In this document: positions 12,013 through 21,905 of the stretch, piece by piece
Layout of the letters: each line of letters begins with the position of its first letter
How positions within the stretch are numbered: the first letter of the stretch is position 1
Source: a virus
DNA length: 24,720 nucleotides
Strand: one strand, 5' to 3'
IMG/VR virus record: IMGVR_UViG_3300047276_000263
Span: 1-24,720 of that record
Program-made: the position numbers and the translations under genes
The notes under the pieces: generated by a model
Told to the model about the DNA's origin: nothing
Databases searched by the model: none
Seen by the model: only the letters and a program-made list of their open reading frames with translations

Positions 12013-12597
12013 GTGGCAACTACATCCATCGACATTTGCGCTCGTGCGCTGATTTTGATTGGGGCTAATCCCATTACCTCGTTTTCCGATGGGACAACGG
12101 AGGCCACTGTTGCCGCCAACCTCTATGAAGATACTGTTAGGGATATGCTGGCGCGGCATCGCTGGCGCTTTGCAACTGGTCAATCGCAGCTTTCACGCCT
12201 TGTTGCTGTACCTGACGGTAGGTGGGATTCTGCTTATCAGCTACCTTCTGATTTGCTTATTCTTCATTCCATCACTGTTACTGATGATGTTATTGCCTAT
12301 GACCGCTATCAGGACATGGTTTACTGCAATGCTACGTCAGAAGATGTAGTGGTTGCGGATTATACCTTCCGAGCGGATGAGAGCCTTTGGCCTCCCACTT
12401 TCGTAACTGCTATGCAGTTCCAGCTTGCTTCGATCTTCGCGTATTCGGTTGCAGCCCAGGAGGGGCTCTCGGATATGATGGAGAAGCGGGCTGTGCGCTA
12501 CACCTCGATTGCCCGGAACATTGATAGCCAGAGCCAGACTACGCGCAGGCTGAATGTGCAGAGGTTCCACCAGCTACGCACTACTATAAGGGGTTGA
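12013..12597 (+). CDS. Tail tubular protein A
   Basis: This 194-aa protein matches the T7 gp11-like gatekeeper family: TSIDICARALILIGANPITS, YEDTVRDMLARHRWRFATGQ and, in the middle, the strand-rich WDSAYQLPSDLLILHSITV. The C-terminal part is helical (AMQFQLASIFAYSVAAQEGL). It forms the ring under the portal to which the nozzle protein binds. The GTG start at 12013 follows GAGAGGTATAGATT and matches the family N-terminus. It lies just after the terminator, so its expression depends on read-through or another promoter. The next gene starts one base after its stop. Confidence 0.92.
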   Translation: MATTSIDICARALILIGANPITSFSDGTTEATVAANLYEDTVRDMLARHRWRFATGQSQLSRLVAVPDGRWDSAYQLPSDLLILHSITVTDDVIAYDRYQDMVYCNATSEDVVVADYTFRADESLWPPTFVTAMQFQLASIFAYSVAAQEGLSDMMEKRAVRYTSIARNIDSQSQTTRRLNVQRFHQLRTTIRG

Positions 12598-12598
12598 G

Positions 12599-14776
12599 AT
12601 GGGCGTTAAGCTTGTTCAGAACAATTTCGCCAATGGCGAGATTGATCCCCTTATGGATATGCGTCACGATACTGGAGCCTATGTTGGTGGCGCTCGCAGG
12701 CTTCGTAACGTTGCCTTACTCAATCAAGGTGGCGTTAGTCGTCGTCCTGGGACTGAGTATCTGGCTACTCTAAATGCGAAAAGCCGTTTAATTCCTTTTG
12801 AGTTCTCTGCCTCTGAGCGTTACCTCTTTGCCTTTTCTAATACTCGCCTGGATATTTACAGCACTTCCGGCACCTTGATTCAGAGTCTTACTAGTTGCCC
12901 TTGGACTACTTCGCAGCTTTTTGACCTGACCTATACTCAGGCAGCGGATGTGATGATTGTCTGCCATCCAGAGATGCAGACGCAGAAGATTGTACGTACT
13001 TCTCTTTCTACCTTTACACGATCTGCTTTTGCCTTTGGTCAATCTATCAATGCAAACCTAACTTATCAGCCCTACTACAAGTTTGCGGATGATGCTGTGA
13101 CGCTTAGTGCTAGTGGCACTACTGGCAGCGTCACGCTCACTACTAGCGCGGCCTTCTTCACTGCGAGTTATGTTGGTTTGCGAGTTCGTTGGTTTGATGT
13201 GGAAATTGAGATTACTGCATACACCAACTCGACTACCGCAACTGGCACTGTGAAAGGTGAGCTAAAGGGGCGCTATGACATTGATCCTTTCAGAACAACG
13301 CACAACTCAAATGTTATTACTGTAACTCATGTCAATCATGGTCTGGCTACTGGAGCAGTTTTAACCATAGCTGGCTCAAATGGGCTTAGTGGCATCTCAA
13401 ATAACCAGATAAATGGTAGTCGTACGATTACTGTTTTGAACGATAATGAGTACACATTTGTTGCTGGCAGTAATGCTACCGATAGTGCTGATGGCGGCGG
13501 GGTGAATGTTACCTTCTCCGGCAACAATATTCCCACGCGCACTTGGAGTGAACCTTCATTTTCTACTGTGCGCGGCTGGCCAGGGTGTGTAACCTTCCAT
13601 GAAAACCGCCTATGGTTTGGTGGTAGTTACTCGCAGCCTGACGGGTTGTGGAGTTCCAATATTGGCAACTTCTTCAACTTTGATCTTGGGGAGGGCTTGG
13701 ATAATGAGTCTATCCAAGTAACCATTGGCTCTGATGATATCTCATCTGTGAAGCATCTCGTGTCTAATCGGCACTTGCAGATATTCACGGCTACTAGCGA
13801 GTTCTATATTCCTCGTGTTTCGCAGAGTACCATTACTCCAGCGAATATCACCATTGCTCGGCAGACTCCTTACGGTTCATCGAAGGTAACGCCTTTCCCG
13901 TTTGATGGCGCTACTGTGTACGTACAGAGTACGGAGAAAGCTATCCGTGAGTTTCTCTACACGGATACTGAGCAGGCATATAACTCTCCTACTCTAACCT
14001 TGTTGGCGGATCATTTAATCTCCTCGCCGCAGGATATGGCGACTAGTTACGGCACCTCCAAGCGTGGTGAGCAGTATCTTCTTGTGGTGAATGGCGATGG
14101 GACTTTGGCTGTCTTTCATTCGGCTCGCGCTGAAAAGCTGGCTGGCTGGACTCTTTGGTCCACAAGCCATCCATCGGGAACTGCCTCTTTTGATAGCGTG
14201 GTGGGGCTTGGTGATCGTATATATATTTCTGTTCTTCGTGGTTCTTCTTACTATCTTGAGCGATTCGCTGAGTCTGATCAGGACCTAACACTAGATTGCA
14301 CGGTTTCCTATACGAGTGGTTCGGCCACAAGTAGTTGGACTGTGGGCTCGATCTTCTACAATCGTGTAGTGTCCGTCACCTCGAATAACTACTACCTTGG
14401 TGATTTTACCGTGGGTGCTAGTGGCGCGTTGACGCTCAATGATGAGGTCACTTCGATCAAGGTTGGCTTTAACTTTACGCCCGAGATTGAAACTCTGCCT
14501 GTCAATTTGCAGATGCCGGATGGCTTTTACACTGGCAGGCCCAAGCGTATTGCGCGTGTGATCCTTGGCCTTAACTCTACTCTGGCTGTGAGTGTGGCTG
14601 GCAATAGGTTGATCATACGTCAAGTCACGGATGACTTCTCGGTGCAGCCTACTTCGGTTACGGGCAAGAGGGAGTTCTTCTTGCTTGGCTTCAATCGTGA
14701 TGCCACCGTTTCTATTACTCAAACCGAGCCGCTCCCGATGCGAGTGCTTGGTTTAGCTTTGGAGGTATCAGCCTAA
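12599..14776 (+). CDS. Tail tubular protein B (nozzle)
   Basis: This 725-aa protein is the T7 gp12-like tail nozzle. The N-terminus has the family hallmark NNFANGEIDPLM followed by GGARRLRNVALLNQGGVSRR and PGTEYLA. Later come TVRGWPGCVTFHENRLWFGG and FFNFDLGEGLDNESIQV, both typical of the family. At about residues 230-311 there is an extra beta-rich module (NVITVTHVNHGLATGAVLTI; INGSRTITVLNDNEYTFVAG) that is absent from T7 gp12 and resembles an exchangeable domain seen in other phage tail proteins. A hexamer would form the tube tip through which DNA passes. The stop overlaps the next ATG (TAATG). Confidence 0.92.
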   Translation: MGVKLVQNNFANGEIDPLMDMRHDTGAYVGGARRLRNVALLNQGGVSRRPGTEYLATLNAKSRLIPFEFSASERYLFAFSNTRLDIYSTSGTLIQSLTSCPWTTSQLFDLTYTQAADVMIVCHPEMQTQKIVRTSLSTFTRSAFAFGQSINANLTYQPYYKFADDAVTLSASGTTGSVTLTTSAAFFTASYVGLRVRWFDVEIEITAYTNSTTATGTVKGELKGRYDIDPFRTTHNSNVITVTHVNHGLATGAVLTIAGSNGLSGISNNQINGSRTITVLNDNEYTFVAGSNATDSADGGGVNVTFSGNNIPTRTWSEPSFSTVRGWPGCVTFHENRLWFGGSYSQPDGLWSSNIGNFFNFDLGEGLDNESIQVTIGSDDISSVKHLVSNRHLQIFTATSEFYIPRVSQSTITPANITIARQTPYGSSKVTPFPFDGATVYVQSTEKAIREFLYTDTEQAYNSPTLTLLADHLISSPQDMATSYGTSKRGEQYLLVVNGDGTLAVFHSARAEKLAGWTLWSTSHPSGTASFDSVVGLGDRIYISVLRGSSYYLERFAESDQDLTLDCTVSYTSGSATSSWTVGSIFYNRVVSVTSNNYYLGDFTVGASGALTLNDEVTSIKVGFNFTPEIETLPVNLQMPDGFYTGRPKRIARVILGLNSTLAVSVAGNRLIIRQVTDDFSVQPTSVTGKREFFLLGFNRDATVSITQTEPLPMRVLGLALEVSA

Positions 14777-15309
14777 TGTGTACAGGCATTGAGATAGCTC
14801 TTATTGGCGCGACGGCAGTTTCTACTACGGGAGCTTTTGTTGCTGCTGGGCAGACTGCGGCAGCAGCAGAGGGTGAAGCTAACTTCCGTAACTATCAAAT
14901 TGCTGAGCAGAATAAGCAGCTTGAAGAAGATCGGAAGCTGGTTGAATTGCAAGCTATTGAGCAGGAAAACGCTCGCAGAGATAGATCGAGGCAGATCAAG
15001 GCTACCAATGAAGCTTTCTTGGCTGGCTCTGGTGTGAGTGAAAGCCTATCCTTTGAGGCAATAGATCAGGCTGCGAATAAGGCGCTATCTACTGACATTC
15101 AGAATATTCGGCTTAGTGGCCAGGTATCTAGTGCGCGCCTTGCGGATCAGATTGCAGTCAATCGAGTAGAGCAGCAGTTTCAAAGGACTCGTGCAAGCCA
15201 GATTGCTACGCAGGCTTATACTGGTGCTGTATTCCAATCGGCTTCTTCTGCCCTTAGGAATTATGCTACTGCTGATTATTATAGAACCCGTTCTACTTCT
15301 GGGAGGTAA
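14776..15309 (+). CDS. Internal virion protein B-like
   Basis: A 177-aa protein in the position of T7 gp14. The N-terminus is hydrophobic and Ala/Gly-rich (IEIALIGATAVSTTGAFVAA), suiting membrane insertion, and the rest is a long polar helix rich in Gln, Glu, Arg and Ala (ANFRNYQIAEQNKQLEEDRK; IRLSGQVSSARLADQIAVNR). T7 gp14 forms the outer-membrane part of the DNA ejection channel. Sequence similarity to gp14 is general rather than strong; the call rests on order, length and architecture. The ATG overlaps the nozzle stop, and the next gene starts three bases after its stop with GGGAGG as ribosome site. Confidence 0.78.
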   Translation: MCTGIEIALIGATAVSTTGAFVAAGQTAAAAEGEANFRNYQIAEQNKQLEEDRKLVELQAIEQENARRDRSRQIKATNEAFLAGSGVSESLSFEAIDQAANKALSTDIQNIRLSGQVSSARLADQIAVNRVEQQFQRTRASQIATQAYTGAVFQSASSALRNYATADYYRTRSTSGR

Positions 15310-15312
15310 GTT

Positions 15313-18159
15313 ATGGCCATTCAACGCGATGAACAAAAGATTGGCGTTCAGCCAAGTGGCCGTACTATTCGCGAGTTTCGTACTGAATTGCCTGGGGCAT
15401 TTGGTACACAGCAGGCGGTAGCATTTGGTAATACCATTGCCCAAGCTGTAGAGCCATTTGCTCGCGCCGAAGCAACTGGTGCTGCGCGTGAACAAGCTGC
15501 TGCTGCTCCAATTCCAAAGGATGAGAATGGCAACTACACTCGCCCTCCTGCGCCCGAGGGCTTTGGTATTTTTGCTCGTGGCATCTACGACCAGATTGTA
15601 ACTGAGCGCACTGCCAATTCTTCATACATGGATTTTGAGGCAGAGGCGCAGCGTATTCGTGCCGCGCATGGGAATAATCCCGCCCATGCGATTGATCTTC
15701 TCAATACCTCTGCCGAAGCTCGCCTTTCTGCGATGGACCCACAGGTAAGGGCCAGGGCTGAACCTCTGATTCGTCGTGAGGTTAATCAACACGCCGGGCC
15801 TATCTTGTTTGAGGATGCTCGTCGGCGTGAGCGTCTTGAAGTAGAGAATATCAATAGCATCATCAATCGCTCCCTACAGGAGTCTATTGATCTTGCTTCT
15901 GTTGGAATCCCAGAAGCATCGGCGCGCTCTCTTTCTGCCTTAAATACCGCGCGCACCAATGCTGATTTGTTGCTTGCTCGTGGCGTAATTTCTCAGGGTC
16001 GTCACGCTGAAATCCTAGATGGGTTTACTGCGGTGCAAGCTGGTGGTTCTGTCATGGCTACGGTCATGAACCGCCTGCGTGATGGTACTCTTGATGTTGC
16101 CGCGCTCGATGATCTTTCTCGCGTAGTTCGCTTTCCGTTTACGGATGGCGAGAATGTCATGGGTGTACGCCCTGAGGACATTCGCGCATCTATTCGGACT
16201 CAGGCTGGCCGTGACGCGCTTGCAAATCAGATTGACAGGGTTCGCGCTAATCTCAATAGGCAAGCGGCCACTCAACAGGTAGAGGGGCAGTATAATAACT
16301 TTACCTCTGCCTATTCTGCTGGTGCGCGTGGGGCTCCTGCTGGGATTCCTCGTGAGAGGGCTGATGCCTTTGTCCTGCGTTGGGCTCAGGATAATGGTCT
16401 GAACATCTTTTCTCCCGAGGGAATTGATCGAACCTTTCAGCAGTTTGGGTTTCTACCCCAAAGTGCGTTGCGTTCTTTCTTCTCCAACTCAAATCTTGCT
16501 ACGCCAGAGCAACTAACACAGCGGATGGTATTGTTCCGTCACCTTGATCGGATGCCGATTGGTGGTGGTGAGGACTCTACCGCTCTTGGTGCAATGAGCC
16601 GCAACGACTACAATTTCATGTTCCACTTCAATTCTGGCATGGTTGCTGGTCAAACTGCTGTCCAGGCTGCGGAAACTGCGCGCACTCTGGTTGAGCGTAA
16701 TCGTGCGGCCCCCACAACTTATGATGAGTTATCTCGTTCGGTTCGTGGGCGAATCAAAGAGAATGATGGGATTGATTTAACTGACCGTAAGTTGATGGAT
16801 AAGATTGACGATAACTTTCCATCTACGGGTATTTTCTCTCGCGCTAATTGGGCGACTGCAAGCTTTCAGCAGCGCCGCACCATTCTTTCTAATGTTTACT
16901 CGCTGATGGCAACCAATGATGCTTTGCCATTGGATGATGCGATCAAACAGGGTGTGCGCCAATTTATGACACAGCATACCTATGACCGGAATCTTGTGAG
17001 TGAGAATGGTACTGTTGGGGCTATTGTGCCTCGTAGCCAAGCACTACCACAAGTGATGGATTTGTATGGAAGTGGCGGTAGGGAAGCGCGGACTACCGAC
17101 TACGTTCAGCTTTATGTGAACGCTGCAATCCAGGCTAATCGCTCTTTGGTTCCCACCCCTAATGCTCCAGATGGAGAGAGGTATATTCCTCGCTCTCAAC
17201 CTGGGTGGAATTTGCCAGAGCAATTAAACTACGGGGATAATCTAGCTCTGCGGCATACTGGAATAGACACTGCAAATCCGGGCTACAACCTTGTGGCAAA
17301 GGGTAATGATGGTATCTGGCGCACAGTTTACAATTACCAGAATCAGCCTGTTATTTTGAACCTTGGCGTAGCTGCCCAGAAACAGGATGAATACGCTAGT
17401 ACAATTTCTCTGGATCAATCTGGCTCTCGAGCTATTTACCTTCGTGCCAATCCTCCTGACATTGGAGTGAGTGGACTTCCCGCCGCTGAGAGTTTGCAGC
17501 CTACTCCCGGTATTCCTAATACTGAGTTTAGGCCCGTTCCTCGTCCAGAGAGATTCGGTCCTGTTGAATTGAGGGATGCAATCATTGAACGTCCTGCTGC
17601 TGGTCAGGGTTCTACGCCTGTGATTCCTCGCACGGCTCCACGCCCGGCCCCTGGTATTCGACAGGATACTGACCAGCCCGTCATTCGTCAGCGCGTATCT
17701 GAGAATGACCGCCCTATCTTTGATAGGGTGGCAACCTTTGCGTCCAACTCTACCATTGGCCGTAATGTTGATGGGCTTGAGGCTCCCTTTGTTCGTAGCA
17801 TTTCCAATATGCTTGATGCCATGCCTGAAGAATTGCGGAGTGGGTTCCGTATTACTTCTAGCTATCGCTCAGAGGAGCGGCAGGCACAGCTATTTGCAGA
17901 TGCCGTGGCAAAGTATGGTAGCGAGGAAGCTGCCTCTCGTTGGGTTGCTCGCCCAGGTCAAAGCAATCACGGCTTTGGTCGCGCGGCTGATTTGCGGATG
18001 GACCCGGAAACTCGCGATTGGGTAAGGGGTAATGCCTCTCGCTTTGGGCTGCACTTCCCATTAGCTCATGAGCCGTGGCACATTGAGCCTATATCTGCTC
18101 GGCGTGGTCGTAATGCCGCCACCAATGCTGGTGCCGATAGCGAGGATTGGAACGGATGA
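15313..18159 (+). CDS. Internal virion protein with C-terminal M15/VanY-type peptidase
   Basis: A 948-aa protein in the position of T7 gp15. The first about 680 residues are helical and Arg/Ala/Glu-rich, with no recognised enzyme. A Pro-rich linker (about 715-800) leads to a C-terminal peptidase M15 / D-Ala-D-Ala carboxypeptidase-like domain: GFRITSSYRSEERQAQLF, then SNHGFGRAADL with zinc ligands H886 and D893, and EPWHIEPI with catalytic E920 and ligand H923. Such domains cut peptide stems in peptidoglycan. Ejected with the DNA, it would open the wall for the tail channel, a task done in T7 by the gp16 transglycosylase. Start at 15313 follows GGGAGGTAAGTT. The stop overlaps the next gene start (ATGA). 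Confidence 0.88.
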   Translation: MAIQRDEQKIGVQPSGRTIREFRTELPGAFGTQQAVAFGNTIAQAVEPFARAEATGAAREQAAAAPIPKDENGNYTRPPAPEGFGIFARGIYDQIVTERTANSSYMDFEAEAQRIRAAHGNNPAHAIDLLNTSAEARLSAMDPQVRARAEPLIRREVNQHAGPILFEDARRRERLEVENINSIINRSLQESIDLASVGIPEASARSLSALNTARTNADLLLARGVISQGRHAEILDGFTAVQAGGSVMATVMNRLRDGTLDVAALDDLSRVVRFPFTDGENVMGVRPEDIRASIRTQAGRDALANQIDRVRANLNRQAATQQVEGQYNNFTSAYSAGARGAPAGIPRERADAFVLRWAQDNGLNIFSPEGIDRTFQQFGFLPQSALRSFFSNSNLATPEQLTQRMVLFRHLDRMPIGGGEDSTALGAMSRNDYNFMFHFNSGMVAGQTAVQAAETARTLVERNRAAPTTYDELSRSVRGRIKENDGIDLTDRKLMDKIDDNFPSTGIFSRANWATASFQQRRTILSNVYSLMATNDALPLDDAIKQGVRQFMTQHTYDRNLVSENGTVGAIVPRSQALPQVMDLYGSGGREARTTDYVQLYVNAAIQANRSLVPTPNAPDGERYIPRSQPGWNLPEQLNYGDNLALRHTGIDTANPGYNLVAKGNDGIWRTVYNYQNQPVILNLGVAAQKQDEYASTISLDQSGSRAIYLRANPPDIGVSGLPAAESLQPTPGIPNTEFRPVPRPERFGPVELRDAIIERPAAGQGSTPVIPRTAPRPAPGIRQDTDQPVIRQRVSENDRPIFDRVATFASNSTIGRNVDGLEAPFVRSISNMLDAMPEELRSGFRITSSYRSEERQAQLFADAVAKYGSEEAASRWVARPGQSNHGFGRAADLRMDPETRDWVRGNASRFGLHFPLAHEPWHIEPISARRGRNAATNAGADSEDWNG

Positions 18160-21100
18160 GCGACCTAACTAATCTGCCATTGATGGGTGCTGAAACCCGT
18201 ATTATTCAGCCTCCTACCCCTCCAAATCAGCCTGAGGGTGGCTTCTTTCGCAATGTCATGGACAATGTTGCGAATAGCTGGTGGGTTCAGCAGGGCGCTA
18301 ATATCCTTGAAACCAATATACCTGGTGATCAGAACTTCAATCCTCTTGATCCTGAGTTAATCAAGGGCAAGGAGCAGTATCTTCCTTACTTGCAGGATGC
18401 CCGTTCTCGCGCCCATTTCGATGCCATTTATGAGCGCATTCAATCTTATGAGCAGAGGCGTACTCGCCTTGCCGAAGAAGGTGGTATTGGCTCTGCGCTT
18501 GTAGCGGGCATCTTTGACCCGGCTAACTTTGTGGGTCTTGGTGTAGCTCGTGGCGCTGGCTTTGCTCGCGGCCTCTTAACGGGTGCCTCGACTACTGCGC
18601 TTGTTTCTGGTGGCACGGCACTATTGGAGCAGCAAGTTGCACCAATGGAATCCAGCGAGGTTTATACTCGCGCTGCTTTTGGGGCCGCTTTTGGCGGTTT
18701 GTTTGGTGGCATTGTTGGCCGCAATATTCCATCCAATGCAATGATGGGGGACTTATCTAACACGCTTACTGACTTTGGTAAGGCTGTGGATGAGGCGATA
18801 GAGCGCGGCTCCTTTGGTGGTAATCCAATGGATCGCACAGTTCCGCCCGCTCCTTTTGTTGCACGTGAAACAGGTAATAGCCCAGTTGGCTTTGCTCCGG
18901 CCATGGGGGTTGAGAAGATAGTTTCAGAGAACATTGGCGATCTTGGCCCTATGGTTGCTAGTGGCCACCGCTCCTTTGAAGATTTGGCTTTGAATATGGC
19001 TGGCACTGGCCAGTTGATGAAGCGTAATCTTGGTGGAGAGGCGAGCCCGCAATCCTCTCTGCTTCGGGCTGGTTATTGGACCGGACTCGCGGGCAATACC
19101 ATGAAGTCTGTGGATGATATCTACACTCGCTACATTAGTGGCGGCACACAGGCTGCGAGTATGTTGGGAGCTAATGTCCCTGCGGCTGCAATGCGTGTGG
19201 GGCAGTTCTTTGGTATGCGTCCAGGTGAAGGCAAGATGACTCTTAATGAGTTCTATACTGCCGTTGCTCGGGCTCACTATCGAGACAAGATTGACTCTCC
19301 AATCCCAGAGGTAAAAGAGGCCGCTCTCGAAGTTCGTAAGTTCTTCGATGAGATGCGTGACTATGCTTTGCAGGCTAATATGATCATGGCTCCTGAGACT
19401 GCCCAGAGGTCATTGGATCGTACTATGCAGAGCCTTTCCTCCAAGCAAACCAAGTTGGGGGAATTGGAAAAGAAGGCGGGCCAAACCAAAGACGGTGAGG
19501 TTGATACCTCAAAGCTTTCTGCGAGTGAGCGTGTTCAATATGCTTTGCTTAATAGGGCTATTGGAAAGCTGAATGAGCGGGCTGACTATTATCGTGGCGC
19601 ATTAAACTTCATGCAGTCAAAGCAGAAGCCCGGCCCCAAGGCTGCTGGTTCTGCTGTGATCAGCGAGAAGGAACCCATTGTTACTGGCGCTCCGGCTAAT
19701 GAGAATGTTGGGCGTGTTAATGGGGTGGAGGTTTCTTATACTTCCACTGGGAAGAAAGATGCTGACGGCAATCCCGTTATTGCCCTTTTCCGCCTAGAAG
19801 AAAATAGGATCATCTTTGATCGTGAGGCATCTGATGCTGCTTTTGCGCGTAAGGCTTGGCGCAATCCAAGGGTAGATGGTGTAAACCCACTGCCAGATGA
19901 ATTGTTCCCTACGGCTGATGCGTGGGCTGATTTCATTATGCGACATGAGATGGCTCATGTTACTGTTAGGCGCGGCGCTGGATTGGATAAGGCTGGCTAT
20001 GAGAATCTTATTAATGAGATTGCCCGTAGGCAGATTGAGGAATTGCGCCAACCTACTCGCGTGACTACTGGCACTGCTGCCATTGATAGTGCTACTGCTG
20101 CTGCCAATGAGAACTACTCAAAGTTTCTTGGGCCAGCCAATGAGAAGTATTATCTTCCTCGTATTTGGAATCTTGATAAGGTTCTTGCTGACGAGCTTGG
20201 AGATAAGAACCTTCGTAAGATTCTGCGCCAATGGTTTATTGATAATCCGATTGAGGGTGGAAAGATGGACCCCGCATCTATTGATGCTCGGGTTGATTCA
20301 ACCATAGCTGGCATTTTGAAGCAGGCAGAGCTTGGTGAGTTGTCTCTTGGCCGCAAGGTTGACCAGCCATTCCTCTCTCGTGATCTGAATATCCCGAATG
20401 AGTTGGTATGGGATTTTATTGAGGATGATGTGAACTCCCTCATGAAATCCTATTCTCATAGGGTGGGTCGCTCTTTGGAATTTGCTCGTGCCTTTGGTGA
20501 GCGTGACGCAGAGGATGCCATCTTTGATGCGGCTATTCAGGCAGCGCGCGAGATGGGCGGGACCGAGAAGGAGATTACCACTCGGGTGAATAAGCTTATT
20601 GGTCATGCCGAGAACCTGCGTGACTTCACTTTGGGGGATGTGTACTCCAAGAACCCGCTTTCTCTAAACCGCAAGATTGTTTCTGGAGCAGCTAATTACT
20701 CCACGATTACTAGTCTGGGCCGAGCTTTATTCTCTAGTTTTACTGAGCCTGCAAAAGCTGTGATGATGCATGGCTTTGGTCGAACCTTTGGCTTTGCCTT
20801 CGATGCTCTGGCAGATCGCAAAGCCTTTGGGGATATGGCTGCTGATATGCGGCAGCTTACCGGGCAGGCTTTGGATACCGCAATGGGTCTGAGCATGAGC
20901 CGCTATGGTGAGCAAGGTGGTCCTATCAATGGTTCGATTGATTGGGCGGGACGTATGATGGACAAGGCTACTCGTCCTCTGGCTAAGTTTACCAATGGCC
21001 CATACTTTGTGATGAACTTGCTTGGCCCCTATACTGACGCGCTAAAGAACTTCTCCAATGTGATGAATGCTCATTACATCTTGGAGGATGCTAGGGCGGT

Positions 21101-21905
21101 GGCTTCTGGCAAAGCAAGTGAGCGTACGGTCAAGAATATGGCGGCACTTGGCTTTGATCGTGAGTCTGCGGCTCGCTTGGCTAGTATGCCATTTGAGCGT
21201 GATCGCGCTTTGAACTTGGCCAATATCCAAGATTGGGGTGATGATGAAATGGTGCGGAAGTTTGGGAGTGCGGTTGCTGCCCAAACTATGCGCCAGGTGG
21301 TTACTGCTACCGAGGGCGACATTCCCAATGTAGCTAGGGGCTTTATCGGGGCCGGGGATAAGCGCCGCGAGATACCCTACATTCGGCTCCCATTCCAATT
21401 CATGAACTTCTCCTTTGCCTCCACCAATAAGACGCTTGTCTCTGCCTTGCAGGGGCGTGAGGCTAATGTTGTTGGTGGCTTAATGTCAATGCTTGGTCTG
21501 GCTTATTTATCTCTATGGTTAAAGACACCAGATAAGGCATGGGGGAAAATGCCGATGGAAGATAGGCTAGTTCGTACCATGGAAGGTTCGGGTTTCTTGG
21601 GTATCTTCTCAGATATTTCACAGAAGATCGAGGGGATTAGCCAGAATCGCTTTGGTGTGCGGGCTATGATGGGGCTGGGGCCAAGGTTTGGCCCTCGTAG
21701 CGTAGATGAGCTTGCGCCTATTGGAGAGGCTTTTGGCCCTGTTGCTGGTAAGGCTACTGACATTTACCAGTTAATGTTTGATAATTCCATGACGGCAAAA
21801 GAGGAGGCTCGTGGGATTAGGCGTCTAATTCCCATGAATGACCTTTTTTATCTCCGTGGGATTGTTAATGATCTGGAGCGGTCTGCTTTAGAAGCGGGCT
21901 ATTAG
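18156..21905 (+). CDS. Very large internal virion (ejection) protein with HExxH zincin motif
   Basis: A 1249-aa protein in the position of T7 gp16. After a Pro-rich start come hydrophobic Gly/Ala-rich segments (about residues 110-190; AAFGAAFGGLFGGIVG) suited to membrane insertion, then long helices. Around residues 500-620 a separate domain carries RHEMAHVTVRR, an HExxH motif at H597-E598-M-A-H601, preceded by ELFPTADAWADFIM; this fits a zinc metalloprotease-like fold. A third ligand is not obvious; Glu residues shortly downstream (for example in NEIARRQIEEL) are candidates. The remaining half is helical with more hydrophobic patches (GGLMSMLGLAYLSLWL). No transglycosylase motif is seen. Start at 18156 overlaps the upstream stop; TTG at 18147 is a weaker alternative. 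It is likely part of the ejection channel. Confidence 0.87.
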   Translation: MSDLTNLPLMGAETRIIQPPTPPNQPEGGFFRNVMDNVANSWWVQQGANILETNIPGDQNFNPLDPELIKGKEQYLPYLQDARSRAHFDAIYERIQSYEQRRTRLAEEGGIGSALVAGIFDPANFVGLGVARGAGFARGLLTGASTTALVSGGTALLEQQVAPMESSEVYTRAAFGAAFGGLFGGIVGRNIPSNAMMGDLSNTLTDFGKAVDEAIERGSFGGNPMDRTVPPAPFVARETGNSPVGFAPAMGVEKIVSENIGDLGPMVASGHRSFEDLALNMAGTGQLMKRNLGGEASPQSSLLRAGYWTGLAGNTMKSVDDIYTRYISGGTQAASMLGANVPAAAMRVGQFFGMRPGEGKMTLNEFYTAVARAHYRDKIDSPIPEVKEAALEVRKFFDEMRDYALQANMIMAPETAQRSLDRTMQSLSSKQTKLGELEKKAGQTKDGEVDTSKLSASERVQYALLNRAIGKLNERADYYRGALNFMQSKQKPGPKAAGSAVISEKEPIVTGAPANENVGRVNGVEVSYTSTGKKDADGNPVIALFRLEENRIIFDREASDAAFARKAWRNPRVDGVNPLPDELFPTADAWADFIMRHEMAHVTVRRGAGLDKAGYENLINEIARRQIEELRQPTRVTTGTAAIDSATAAANENYSKFLGPANEKYYLPRIWNLDKVLADELGDKNLRKILRQWFIDNPIEGGKMDPASIDARVDSTIAGILKQAELGELSLGRKVDQPFLSRDLNIPNELVWDFIEDDVNSLMKSYSHRVGRSLEFARAFGERDAEDAIFDAAIQAAREMGGTEKEITTRVNKLIGHAENLRDFTLGDVYSKNPLSLNRKIVSGAANYSTITSLGRALFSSFTEPAKAVMMHGFGRTFGFAFDALADRKAFGDMAADMRQLTGQALDTAMGLSMSRYGEQGGPINGSIDWAGRMMDKATRPLAKFTNGPYFVMNLLGPYTDALKNFSNVMNAHYILEDARAVASGKASERTVKNMAALGFDRESAARLASMPFERDRALNLANIQDWGDDEMVRKFGSAVAAQTMRQVVTATEGDIPNVARGFIGAGDKRREIPYIRLPFQFMNFSFASTNKTLVSALQGREANVVGGLMSMLGLAYLSLWLKTPDKAWGKMPMEDRLVRTMEGSGFLGIFSDISQKIEGISQNRFGVRAMMGLGPRFGPRSVDELAPIGEAFGPVAGKATDIYQLMFDNSMTAKEEARGIRRLIPMNDLFYLRGIVNDLERSALEAGY

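What the first reader, a model, noticed from the sequence alone, without database searches (positions are those of the whole stretch)
19650..20060. HExxH metallopeptidase-like domain inside the giant ejection protein
The 1249-aa gp16-position protein holds RHEMAHVTVRR (H597-E598-M-A-H601) preceded by a compact domain, while the lytic transglycosylase known from T7 gp16 is not seen. A zincin carried in the virion and delivered to the host envelope or cytoplasm could process other ejection proteins, cut host proteins or act on the wall. The motif is seen directly; activity and target are inferred.
Basis: partly seen in the sequence, partly recalled or inferred. Interest (0 to 1): 0.72.

Follow-up and report, generated by a model that had tools for sequence, protein, structure and literature searches.

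The report
Swappable metalloprotease in phage ejection protein
The protein that this short-tailed phage is expected to push into its host along with its DNA carries an inserted zinc-protease-like module that related phages move to other positions, replace with a different enzyme fold, inactivate or drop, which suggests it is delivered cargo aimed at the host rather than part of the DNA-entry machine.

Summary
HEMAH lies at residues 597-601 (nt 19944-19958) of a T7 gp16-type ejection protein and is part of a real ~115-aa zincin-like domain. A 22-sequence AlphaFold model (pLDDT 85.5) puts HExxH and an invariant Glu (E616, 'YEN') on the two adjacent C-terminal helices, and its best solved-structure neighbours are nearly all zincin metal hydrolases at modest Z (up to 6.7). 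Pfam, NCBIfam and PHROGs have no model for it, and tblastn finds it in none of 50,697 phage records. I found 40 sequence-distinct copies: at three different places in homologous ejection proteins and in at least two other kinds of large phage protein. HExxH is intact in 33 of 39 readable copies; the other six (three or four lineages) always have Lys/Arg in place of the first His. Two close relatives lack the zincin and carry an ADP-ribosyltransferase-fold domain instead, one at the same spot. Best reading: an exchangeable metallopeptidase effector riding on gp16, most likely cutting a host protein in the cytoplasm or at the inner membrane. The wall-enzyme reading is unlikely, because a VanY-type peptidase sits on the neighbouring gp15-position protein. 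Metal binding, activity and target are not shown.

The parts
18156..21905 (+). T7 gp16-type ejection (internal virion) protein, 1249 aa, scaffold that carries the inserted domain
   Evidence: phrog_342 'internal virion protein with endolysin domain' E 3.3e-47 on residues 750-1239; third gene of the gp14-gp15-gp16 order; profile alignment of residues 81-186 to T7 gp16 295-404, E 3e-6
18396..18713 (+). Gly-rich segment equivalent to T7 gp16 295-404; the protein starts downstream of the T7 transglycosylase (gp16-N) region
   Evidence: hhalign
19620..20150 (+). Variable insert region between conserved flanks KQKPGP and SKFLGPANEKYYLPR (site 1): zincin in window/L003/L005, empty in L004, ADP-ribosyltransferase-fold domain in L006
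   Evidence: alignment of L003-L006 and the window
19698..20072 (+). Zincin-like domain, residues 515-639 (core about 522-633)
   Evidence: AlphaFold2 model pLDDT 85.5, pTM 0.79; structural neighbours; 40 homologous copies
19944..19958 (+). HEMAH, H597-E598-M-A-H601: predicted zinc ligands and catalytic base, on helix 73-89 of the model
   Evidence: intact in 33 of 39 readable copies
19998..20015 (+). Y615-E616-N617-L-I-N620 on the next helix; E616 is the candidate third metal ligand (nt 20001-20003), 15 residues after H601
   Evidence: invariant in the 22-sequence alignment; helix 98-117 in the model; geometry not measured
20403..21872 (+). Conserved C-terminal half (gp16-C core), residues 750-1239
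21240..21242 (+). Position (about residue 1029) at which most relatives carry the same zincin domain (site 2); empty in the window
15313..18159 (+). gp15-position ejection protein, 948 aa, with C-terminal VanY-type D-Ala-D-Ala carboxypeptidase (residues 828-913, nt 17794-18051) and an apparently complete motif SNHGFGRAADL...HEPWH
   Evidence: PF02557 E 3.1e-10; sequence
14776..15309 (+). gp14-position ejection protein, 177 aa
   Evidence: weak PF24072 T7_gp14 (E 0.021) and phrog_418 internal virion protein (E 0.044), plus gene order

Best explanation
The segment is a small zincin-type metallopeptidase domain inserted into the gp16-C part of a T7-type ejection protein. Two His of HExxH and E616 on the following helix would hold the metal, and E598 would activate the water. 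The domain is not part of the core ejection machinery but an exchangeable cargo module. Packaged in the head as part of gp16, it would enter the host with the ejectosome and be exposed at the inner membrane or in the cytoplasm, where it most likely cuts a host protein (defence or host-takeover target) in the first minutes of infection. Shown here: the domain, its conservation, its three positions in the scaffold, its presence in other phage proteins, its absence or replacement by an ADP-ribosyltransferase-fold domain in close relatives, and its decay in some lineages. Predicted: the fold. Inferred: metal binding, proteolysis, delivery (by homology to T7) and host target.
For: Predicted zincin topology with HExxH and the invariant Glu on the last two helices. 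Structural neighbours by VIA-align are nearly all zincin-type metal hydrolases in the first 28 rows: YbeY Z 6.7 (rmsd 3.1, 95 aligned), DPP III 5.0 (3.7, 108), selecase 5.0 (4.5, 76), Acel_2062 4.6 (3.2, 73), Wss1 4.5, IrrE 4.2; phage 'metallopeptidase', SprT-like and IrrE-like models follow in BFVD. Domain dN/dS 0.04, at least as constrained as the scaffold. Three positions in homologous scaffolds (window-equivalent residues ~224-262, 514, ~1029) and copies in two other large phage protein types (L080/L082 2.35 kaa; L081 1.3 kaa); tree not following host protein. Near relatives: L004 (77% identical) and L006 (50%) have no zincin anywhere in their records but an ART-fold domain; window, L003 and L005 the reverse (ART fold: Tpt1/KptA Z 9.2, DarT ~7). 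In all six copies lacking the first His it is Lys or Arg, while the motif Glu is kept in all and the YEN/FEN Glu in five (in L025 the YEN lies beyond a long insert), as expected if a basic side chain takes the metal's place in a shared pocket (inference).
Against: No sequence-profile match to any known peptidase family above threshold and Foldseek found no PDB match at E<=0.001; Z values are modest. In Hodr and others the domain persists without metal ligands, so it can have a non-catalytic role, and the Glu and YEN conservation in dead copies could be structural. No partner, substrate or defence-system link was found. Records are metagenomic fragments, so absence from a record is not proof. 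Delivery into the cytoplasm rests on the T7 model in PMC8954989.
Confidence: 0.6

Rival explanations
1. Active zincin, but self-directed: it cleaves gp16 or another ejection protein (in the head or after ejection) to free a part or allow refolding, as proposed for phage P1 DdrB and as one option for N4 vRNAP.
For: This is the leading proposal for zincins in polyvalent proteins (PMC5512222); the domain is in cis with a protein that must refold on ejection.
Against: Homologous scaffolds without any copy in their records (L004, L006, L024, L028) and isolates with a dead copy (Hodr) exist; the domain sits at three different places in the scaffold, which a fixed self-cleavage geometry does not predict; an ART-fold domain replaces it in relatives.
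Confidence: 0.2
2. Zincin-fold domain now used as a structural or binding element (pseudo-enzyme), with catalysis secondary or lost.
For: At least three lineages lost HExxH yet keep the domain and the YEN/FEN motif; Hodr, an isolate, keeps a dead copy (E 3e-13).
Against: 33 of 39 copies, including the window's and those in unrelated host proteins, keep HExxH across ~35% identity; strong purifying selection.
Confidence: 0.12
3. Wall- or envelope-acting metalloenzyme that replaces the T7 gp16 transglycosylase.
For: The transglycosylase region of T7 gp16 is missing.
Against: A VanY-type peptidase is on the gp15-position protein, matching the known gp16-to-gp15 swap of the wall enzyme (PMC8954989); the zincin lies in gp16-C, not at the N-terminus; it can be missing.
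Confidence: 0.05
4. Chance HExxH in a helical scaffold, no zincin.
For: T7 gp16 itself has an HERLH at 559 that is not part of such a domain.
Against: Conservation, fold model, mobility as a unit, copies in other proteins.
Confidence: 0.03

Closest known systems
Zincin-like MPTase domains of polyvalent proteins (Iyer et al. 2017, PMC5512222), e.g. phage N4 vRNAP C-terminal region and P1 DdrB
   Same: Small zincin with HExxH on the first and Glu on the second C-terminal helix, variable inserts between those two helices (seen here in L011, L059-L061), carried in very large virion-delivered phage proteins, ART domains in the same class of proteins
   Different: Host protein is a T7 gp16-type ejection protein, not named in that paper's text; no match to PF18818 and no convincing profile match to the N4 domain
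T7 gp16 ejection protein (phrog_342)
   Same: Gene position, C-terminal half, Gly-rich segment
   Different: No N-terminal transglycosylase; carries a zincin that T7 lacks
T4 Alt, an ADP-ribosyltransferase injected from the head (as described in PMC5512222)
   Same: Works-like analogy: enzyme packaged in the virion and delivered with the DNA to act on host proteins
   Different: Different enzyme class for the window; the ART-fold domain is only in sister phages and is an insert within gp16, not a separate protein
Minimal gluzincins, YbeY, IrrE/ImmA, SprT/Wss1 (PDB 4qhf, 1xm5, 3dte, 5xbn)
   Same: Predicted fold arrangement
   Different: No sequence similarity detectable by profile

Membership tests
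Zincin-like metallopeptidases (superfamily) | HExxH on a helix | tested here: met
   H597-H601 on model helix 73-89; 33 of 39 readable copies
Zincin-like metallopeptidases (superfamily) | Sheet plus two C-terminal helices, the second bearing a conserved ligand | tested here: met
   Model: strands 4-7, 10-14, 29-32, 37-40, helices 42-50, 73-89, 98-117; invariant E616 on the last helix. Prediction only
Zincin-like metallopeptidases (superfamily) | Fold match to solved zincins | tested here: inconclusive
   Nearly all top VIA-align rows are zincins but Z <= 6.7; Foldseek PDB E > 0.001
Zincin-like metallopeptidases (superfamily) | Binds zinc and cleaves peptide bonds | not testable with these tools
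   needs protein
MPTase-PolyVal (PF18818) | Matches the family profile | tested here: not met
   No match in any of 10 members nor anywhere in the window record
Peptidase M13 (PF01431) | Profile score over the cut-off | tested here: not met
   15.1 bits against a cut-off of 24.5, over the HExxH helix only
T7 gp16-type ejection proteins (phrog_342) | C-terminal gp16-C core | tested here: met
   E 3.3e-47, residues 750-1239
T7 gp16-type ejection proteins (phrog_342) | gp14-gp15-gp16 gene order next to tail tube proteins | tested here: met
   ORFs 12013-21905; the gp14 match itself is weak
T7 gp16-type ejection proteins (phrog_342) | N-terminal transglycosylase (T7; known to be absent or swapped in others) | tested here: not met
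   the wall enzyme is VanY on the gp15-position protein
Polyvalent proteins (Iyer et al. 2017) | Several unrelated enzymatic domains in one injected polypeptide | tested here: inconclusive
   Only one enzymatic domain is recognised in the window protein; L059 and L072-L076 carry the zincin plus ART-like inserts
Polyvalent proteins (Iyer et al. 2017) | Packaged and injected with the DNA | not testable with these tools
   inferred from T7 gp16 homology

The most novel reading that the evidence does not exclude
gp16-type ejection proteins of a broad group of uncultivated podophages have at least three permissive sites where small effector enzymes are swapped in and out: a zincin family unknown to Pfam and PHROGs, an ADP-ribosyltransferase-fold family, and nested combinations of both. 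The short-tailed phage ejectosome would then double as an effector-injection device, with zincin decay to Lys/Arg-plugged pseudo-enzymes recording an arms race with the host.
Probability: 0.45. Interest if true: 0.75.

Novelty: new variant of a known kind. Interest (0 to 1): 0.6.

Why it matters
Ejection proteins are usually seen as a conduit for DNA, with one wall enzyme. Here the same scaffold carries a mobile, selectively maintained metallopeptidase that close relatives replace with an ADP-ribosyltransferase fold. If true, the gp16 insert sites give a simple sequence-based way to find host-directed enzymes that act before any phage gene is expressed, and natural zincin-minus, zincin-dead and ART-for-zincin relatives make the question testable.

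Tried and rejected
Domain tblastn against phages (window, site-2, site-3 and HELHH-type queries) and plasmids: no match. Scan of bacterial and archaeal genome contigs: no relative. PDB sequence search with the single sequence and two profiles: only chance ribosomal L5 hits for the single sequence, nothing for the profiles. Peptidase M13 as a family: subthreshold and limited to the motif. N4 vRNAP zincin as direct relative: only 10 columns around HExxH align. T7 HERLH at 559 as a cryptic zincin: no profile support. Foldseek's top PDB hits for both models are chance level, so the fold argument rests on the VIA-align second look and topology; families not listed there are not excluded. Wall enzyme: rejected in favour of VanY on the neighbour. 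Literature: three searches combining ejection or internal virion proteins with zinc, metalloprotease or metallopeptidase terms gave no paper describing a zincin in a gp16-type ejection protein, but the library holds open-licence papers only.

Full report
Observation. The window is an IMG/VR virus record of 24,720 bases. It holds a podophage-type late cluster: terminase, portal, capsid, tail-tube proteins, then gp14-, gp15- and gp16-position genes. The gp16-position ORF (18156-21905, 1249 aa) has H597-E598-M-A-H601 at nt 19944-19958. Given the protein's nine His, any HExxH turns up in 0.3% of shuffles.

What protein it sits in. The C-terminal half (750-1239) matches phrog_342, the T7 gp16 family, at E 3.3e-47. 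Residues 81-186 align with T7 gp16 295-404 (E 3e-6). The protein therefore begins downstream of the T7 transglycosylase region, which is missing. A wall enzyme is still present in the cluster: the gp15-position protein ends in a VanY-type carboxypeptidase (PF02557, E 3.1e-10; motif SNHGFGRAADL...HEPWH). A shift of the wall enzyme from gp16 to gp15 is known in other podophages (PMC8954989).

Relatives of the whole protein. L003 (97%) and L005 (73%) keep the domain. L004 (77%) lacks it at the exact spot: the flanks KQKPGP and SKFLGPANEKY are joined by a short linker, and a different insert sits further down. L006 (50%) has that other kind of insert at the same spot. Whole-record searches confirm the split: window, L003 and L005 have the zincin and not the other domain; L004 and L006 have the other domain and not the zincin (the records are fragments). 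The other insert models as an ADP-ribosyltransferase fold (pLDDT 80.8), with Tpt1/KptA at Z 9.2 (rmsd 3.0, 92 aligned) and DarT at about 7.

Relatives of the domain. Searches with domain alignments found it in further uncultivated phages. A local HMM collects 40 sequence-distinct copies, the window's included. Most are in gp16-type proteins, but at a different position: residue ~1029 in window coordinates, between two conserved C-terminal segments. L036, Pelagibacter phage Hodr and probably L072-L076 have it at a third, N-terminal position. L080/L082 and L081 carry it in other large proteins; L080 and L081 gave no phrog_342 match. The window copy groups with L036, L080 and L082 in a domain tree (support 0.78; short alignment, weak tree). 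It is thus a unit that moves between sites and proteins.

Conservation of the site. HExxH is intact in 33 of 39 readable copies. The six others read REITR, REIMH, KEVYR, KELNR and KELNQ (twice): the motif Glu is always kept and the first His is always replaced by Lys or Arg. YEN/FEN, 15 residues after the second His in the window, is kept in five of these six; in the sixth (L025) it lies beyond a long insert. One explanation is a basic side chain filling the metal's place between the two Glu, which would mean that they share a pocket; a structural role of these Glu is the alternative. The window domain is under strong constraint (dN 0.019, dS 0.49 against L003, no weaker than the scaffold).

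Fold. The 22-sequence AlphaFold2 model has mean pLDDT 85.5 and pTM 0.79, with strands, a helix, the HExxH helix (73-89) and the YEN helix (98-117). This agrees with the zincin core described for polyvalent proteins: sheet, helix, HExxH helix, Glu helix (PMC5512222). VIA-align on Foldseek's candidates lists almost only zincin-type metal hydrolases in its first 28 rows (YbeY 6.7, DPP III 5.0, selecase 5.0, Acel_2062 4.6, Wss1 4.5, IrrE 4.2). The Z values are modest and Foldseek alone is not significant in the PDB. BFVD has five hits at E <= 0.001, all in large phage proteins. Coordinates could not be read, so ligand distances remain unmeasured.

Mechanism. In T7, gp16-C (411-1118) is modelled as a cytoplasmic hub after ejection (PMC8954989), and site 1 falls in the corresponding region. 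The simplest reading is a metallopeptidase delivered to the cytoplasm or inner-membrane face. Absence in a 77% identical scaffold, loss of catalytic residues elsewhere, three positions and replacement by an ADP-ribosyltransferase fold argue that it is not needed for ejection itself and is host-directed. Iyer et al. already listed self-processing and host targeting as options for such domains; the exchange pattern here favours the second. Target, metal and activity are inferred.

Known or new. Zincins and ARTs in virion-delivered phage proteins are a described theme (PMC5512222), but gp16 is not mentioned there, no library profile covers this family, and the 50,697 phage records give no tblastn match, although a profile finds the decayed copy in Hodr. 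I therefore rate it a new variant of a known kind.

Noticed in passing
window:17794-18051 (in ORF 15313-18159): VanY-type D-Ala-D-Ala carboxypeptidase on the C-terminus of the gp15-position ejection protein; wall enzyme moved off gp16.
   Followed up: partly
L006:7498-7902, L004:7912-8310, L072-L076:4992-5327: Unannotated ADP-ribosyltransferase-fold domain (YHGT/FHGS ... VSF ... DYATR ... VIP) inserted in gp16-type proteins; nearest solved folds Tpt1/KptA and DarT.
   Followed up: yes
L072 (after residue ~420 of its gp16-type ORF): A second ART-like stretch (LFHGYGRAQKGSIYSQKNGGPLFGSARYMSFSKT) follows the first in the same protein.
   Followed up: no
L059:5280-5900: A ~200-aa ART-like insert (YFVHFT ... 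VMYFT) splits the zincin between the HExxH helix and the YEN helix; L011, L060 and L061 have other inserts at the same place.
   Followed up: partly
L005, between zincin and FLGPANEKF: Extra ~150-aa segment (KGLKETAGWKFHVGYNSLS...) next to the zincin, unidentified.
   Followed up: no
L020, L021, L022 (HELHH, near residues 1009-1073 of the gp16-type ORF): A divergent zincin-like version with HELHH and YEKRID and a different N-terminal part at site 2.
   Followed up: partly
L080 and L082: 2.35-kaa phage proteins with the zincin; L080 also has an apparent transglycosylase-like stretch (AETTFGINNKISSTGAVGELQVIYPTF) and no Pfam match.
   Followed up: partly
L063 (Pelagibacter phage Hodr, OQ414635) residues 258-378 of its gp16-type protein: Isolate with a decayed copy of the zincin (KEVYR, FENRIN), annotated hypothetical protein.
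   Followed up: yes
window:10245-10718: Small ORF that reads like a GNAT acetyltransferase lying between the putative scaffold and capsid genes.
   Followed up: no
window:22267-24720: Open-ended tail-fibre-like ORF with a long Ala/Ser-rich repeat.
   Followed up: no
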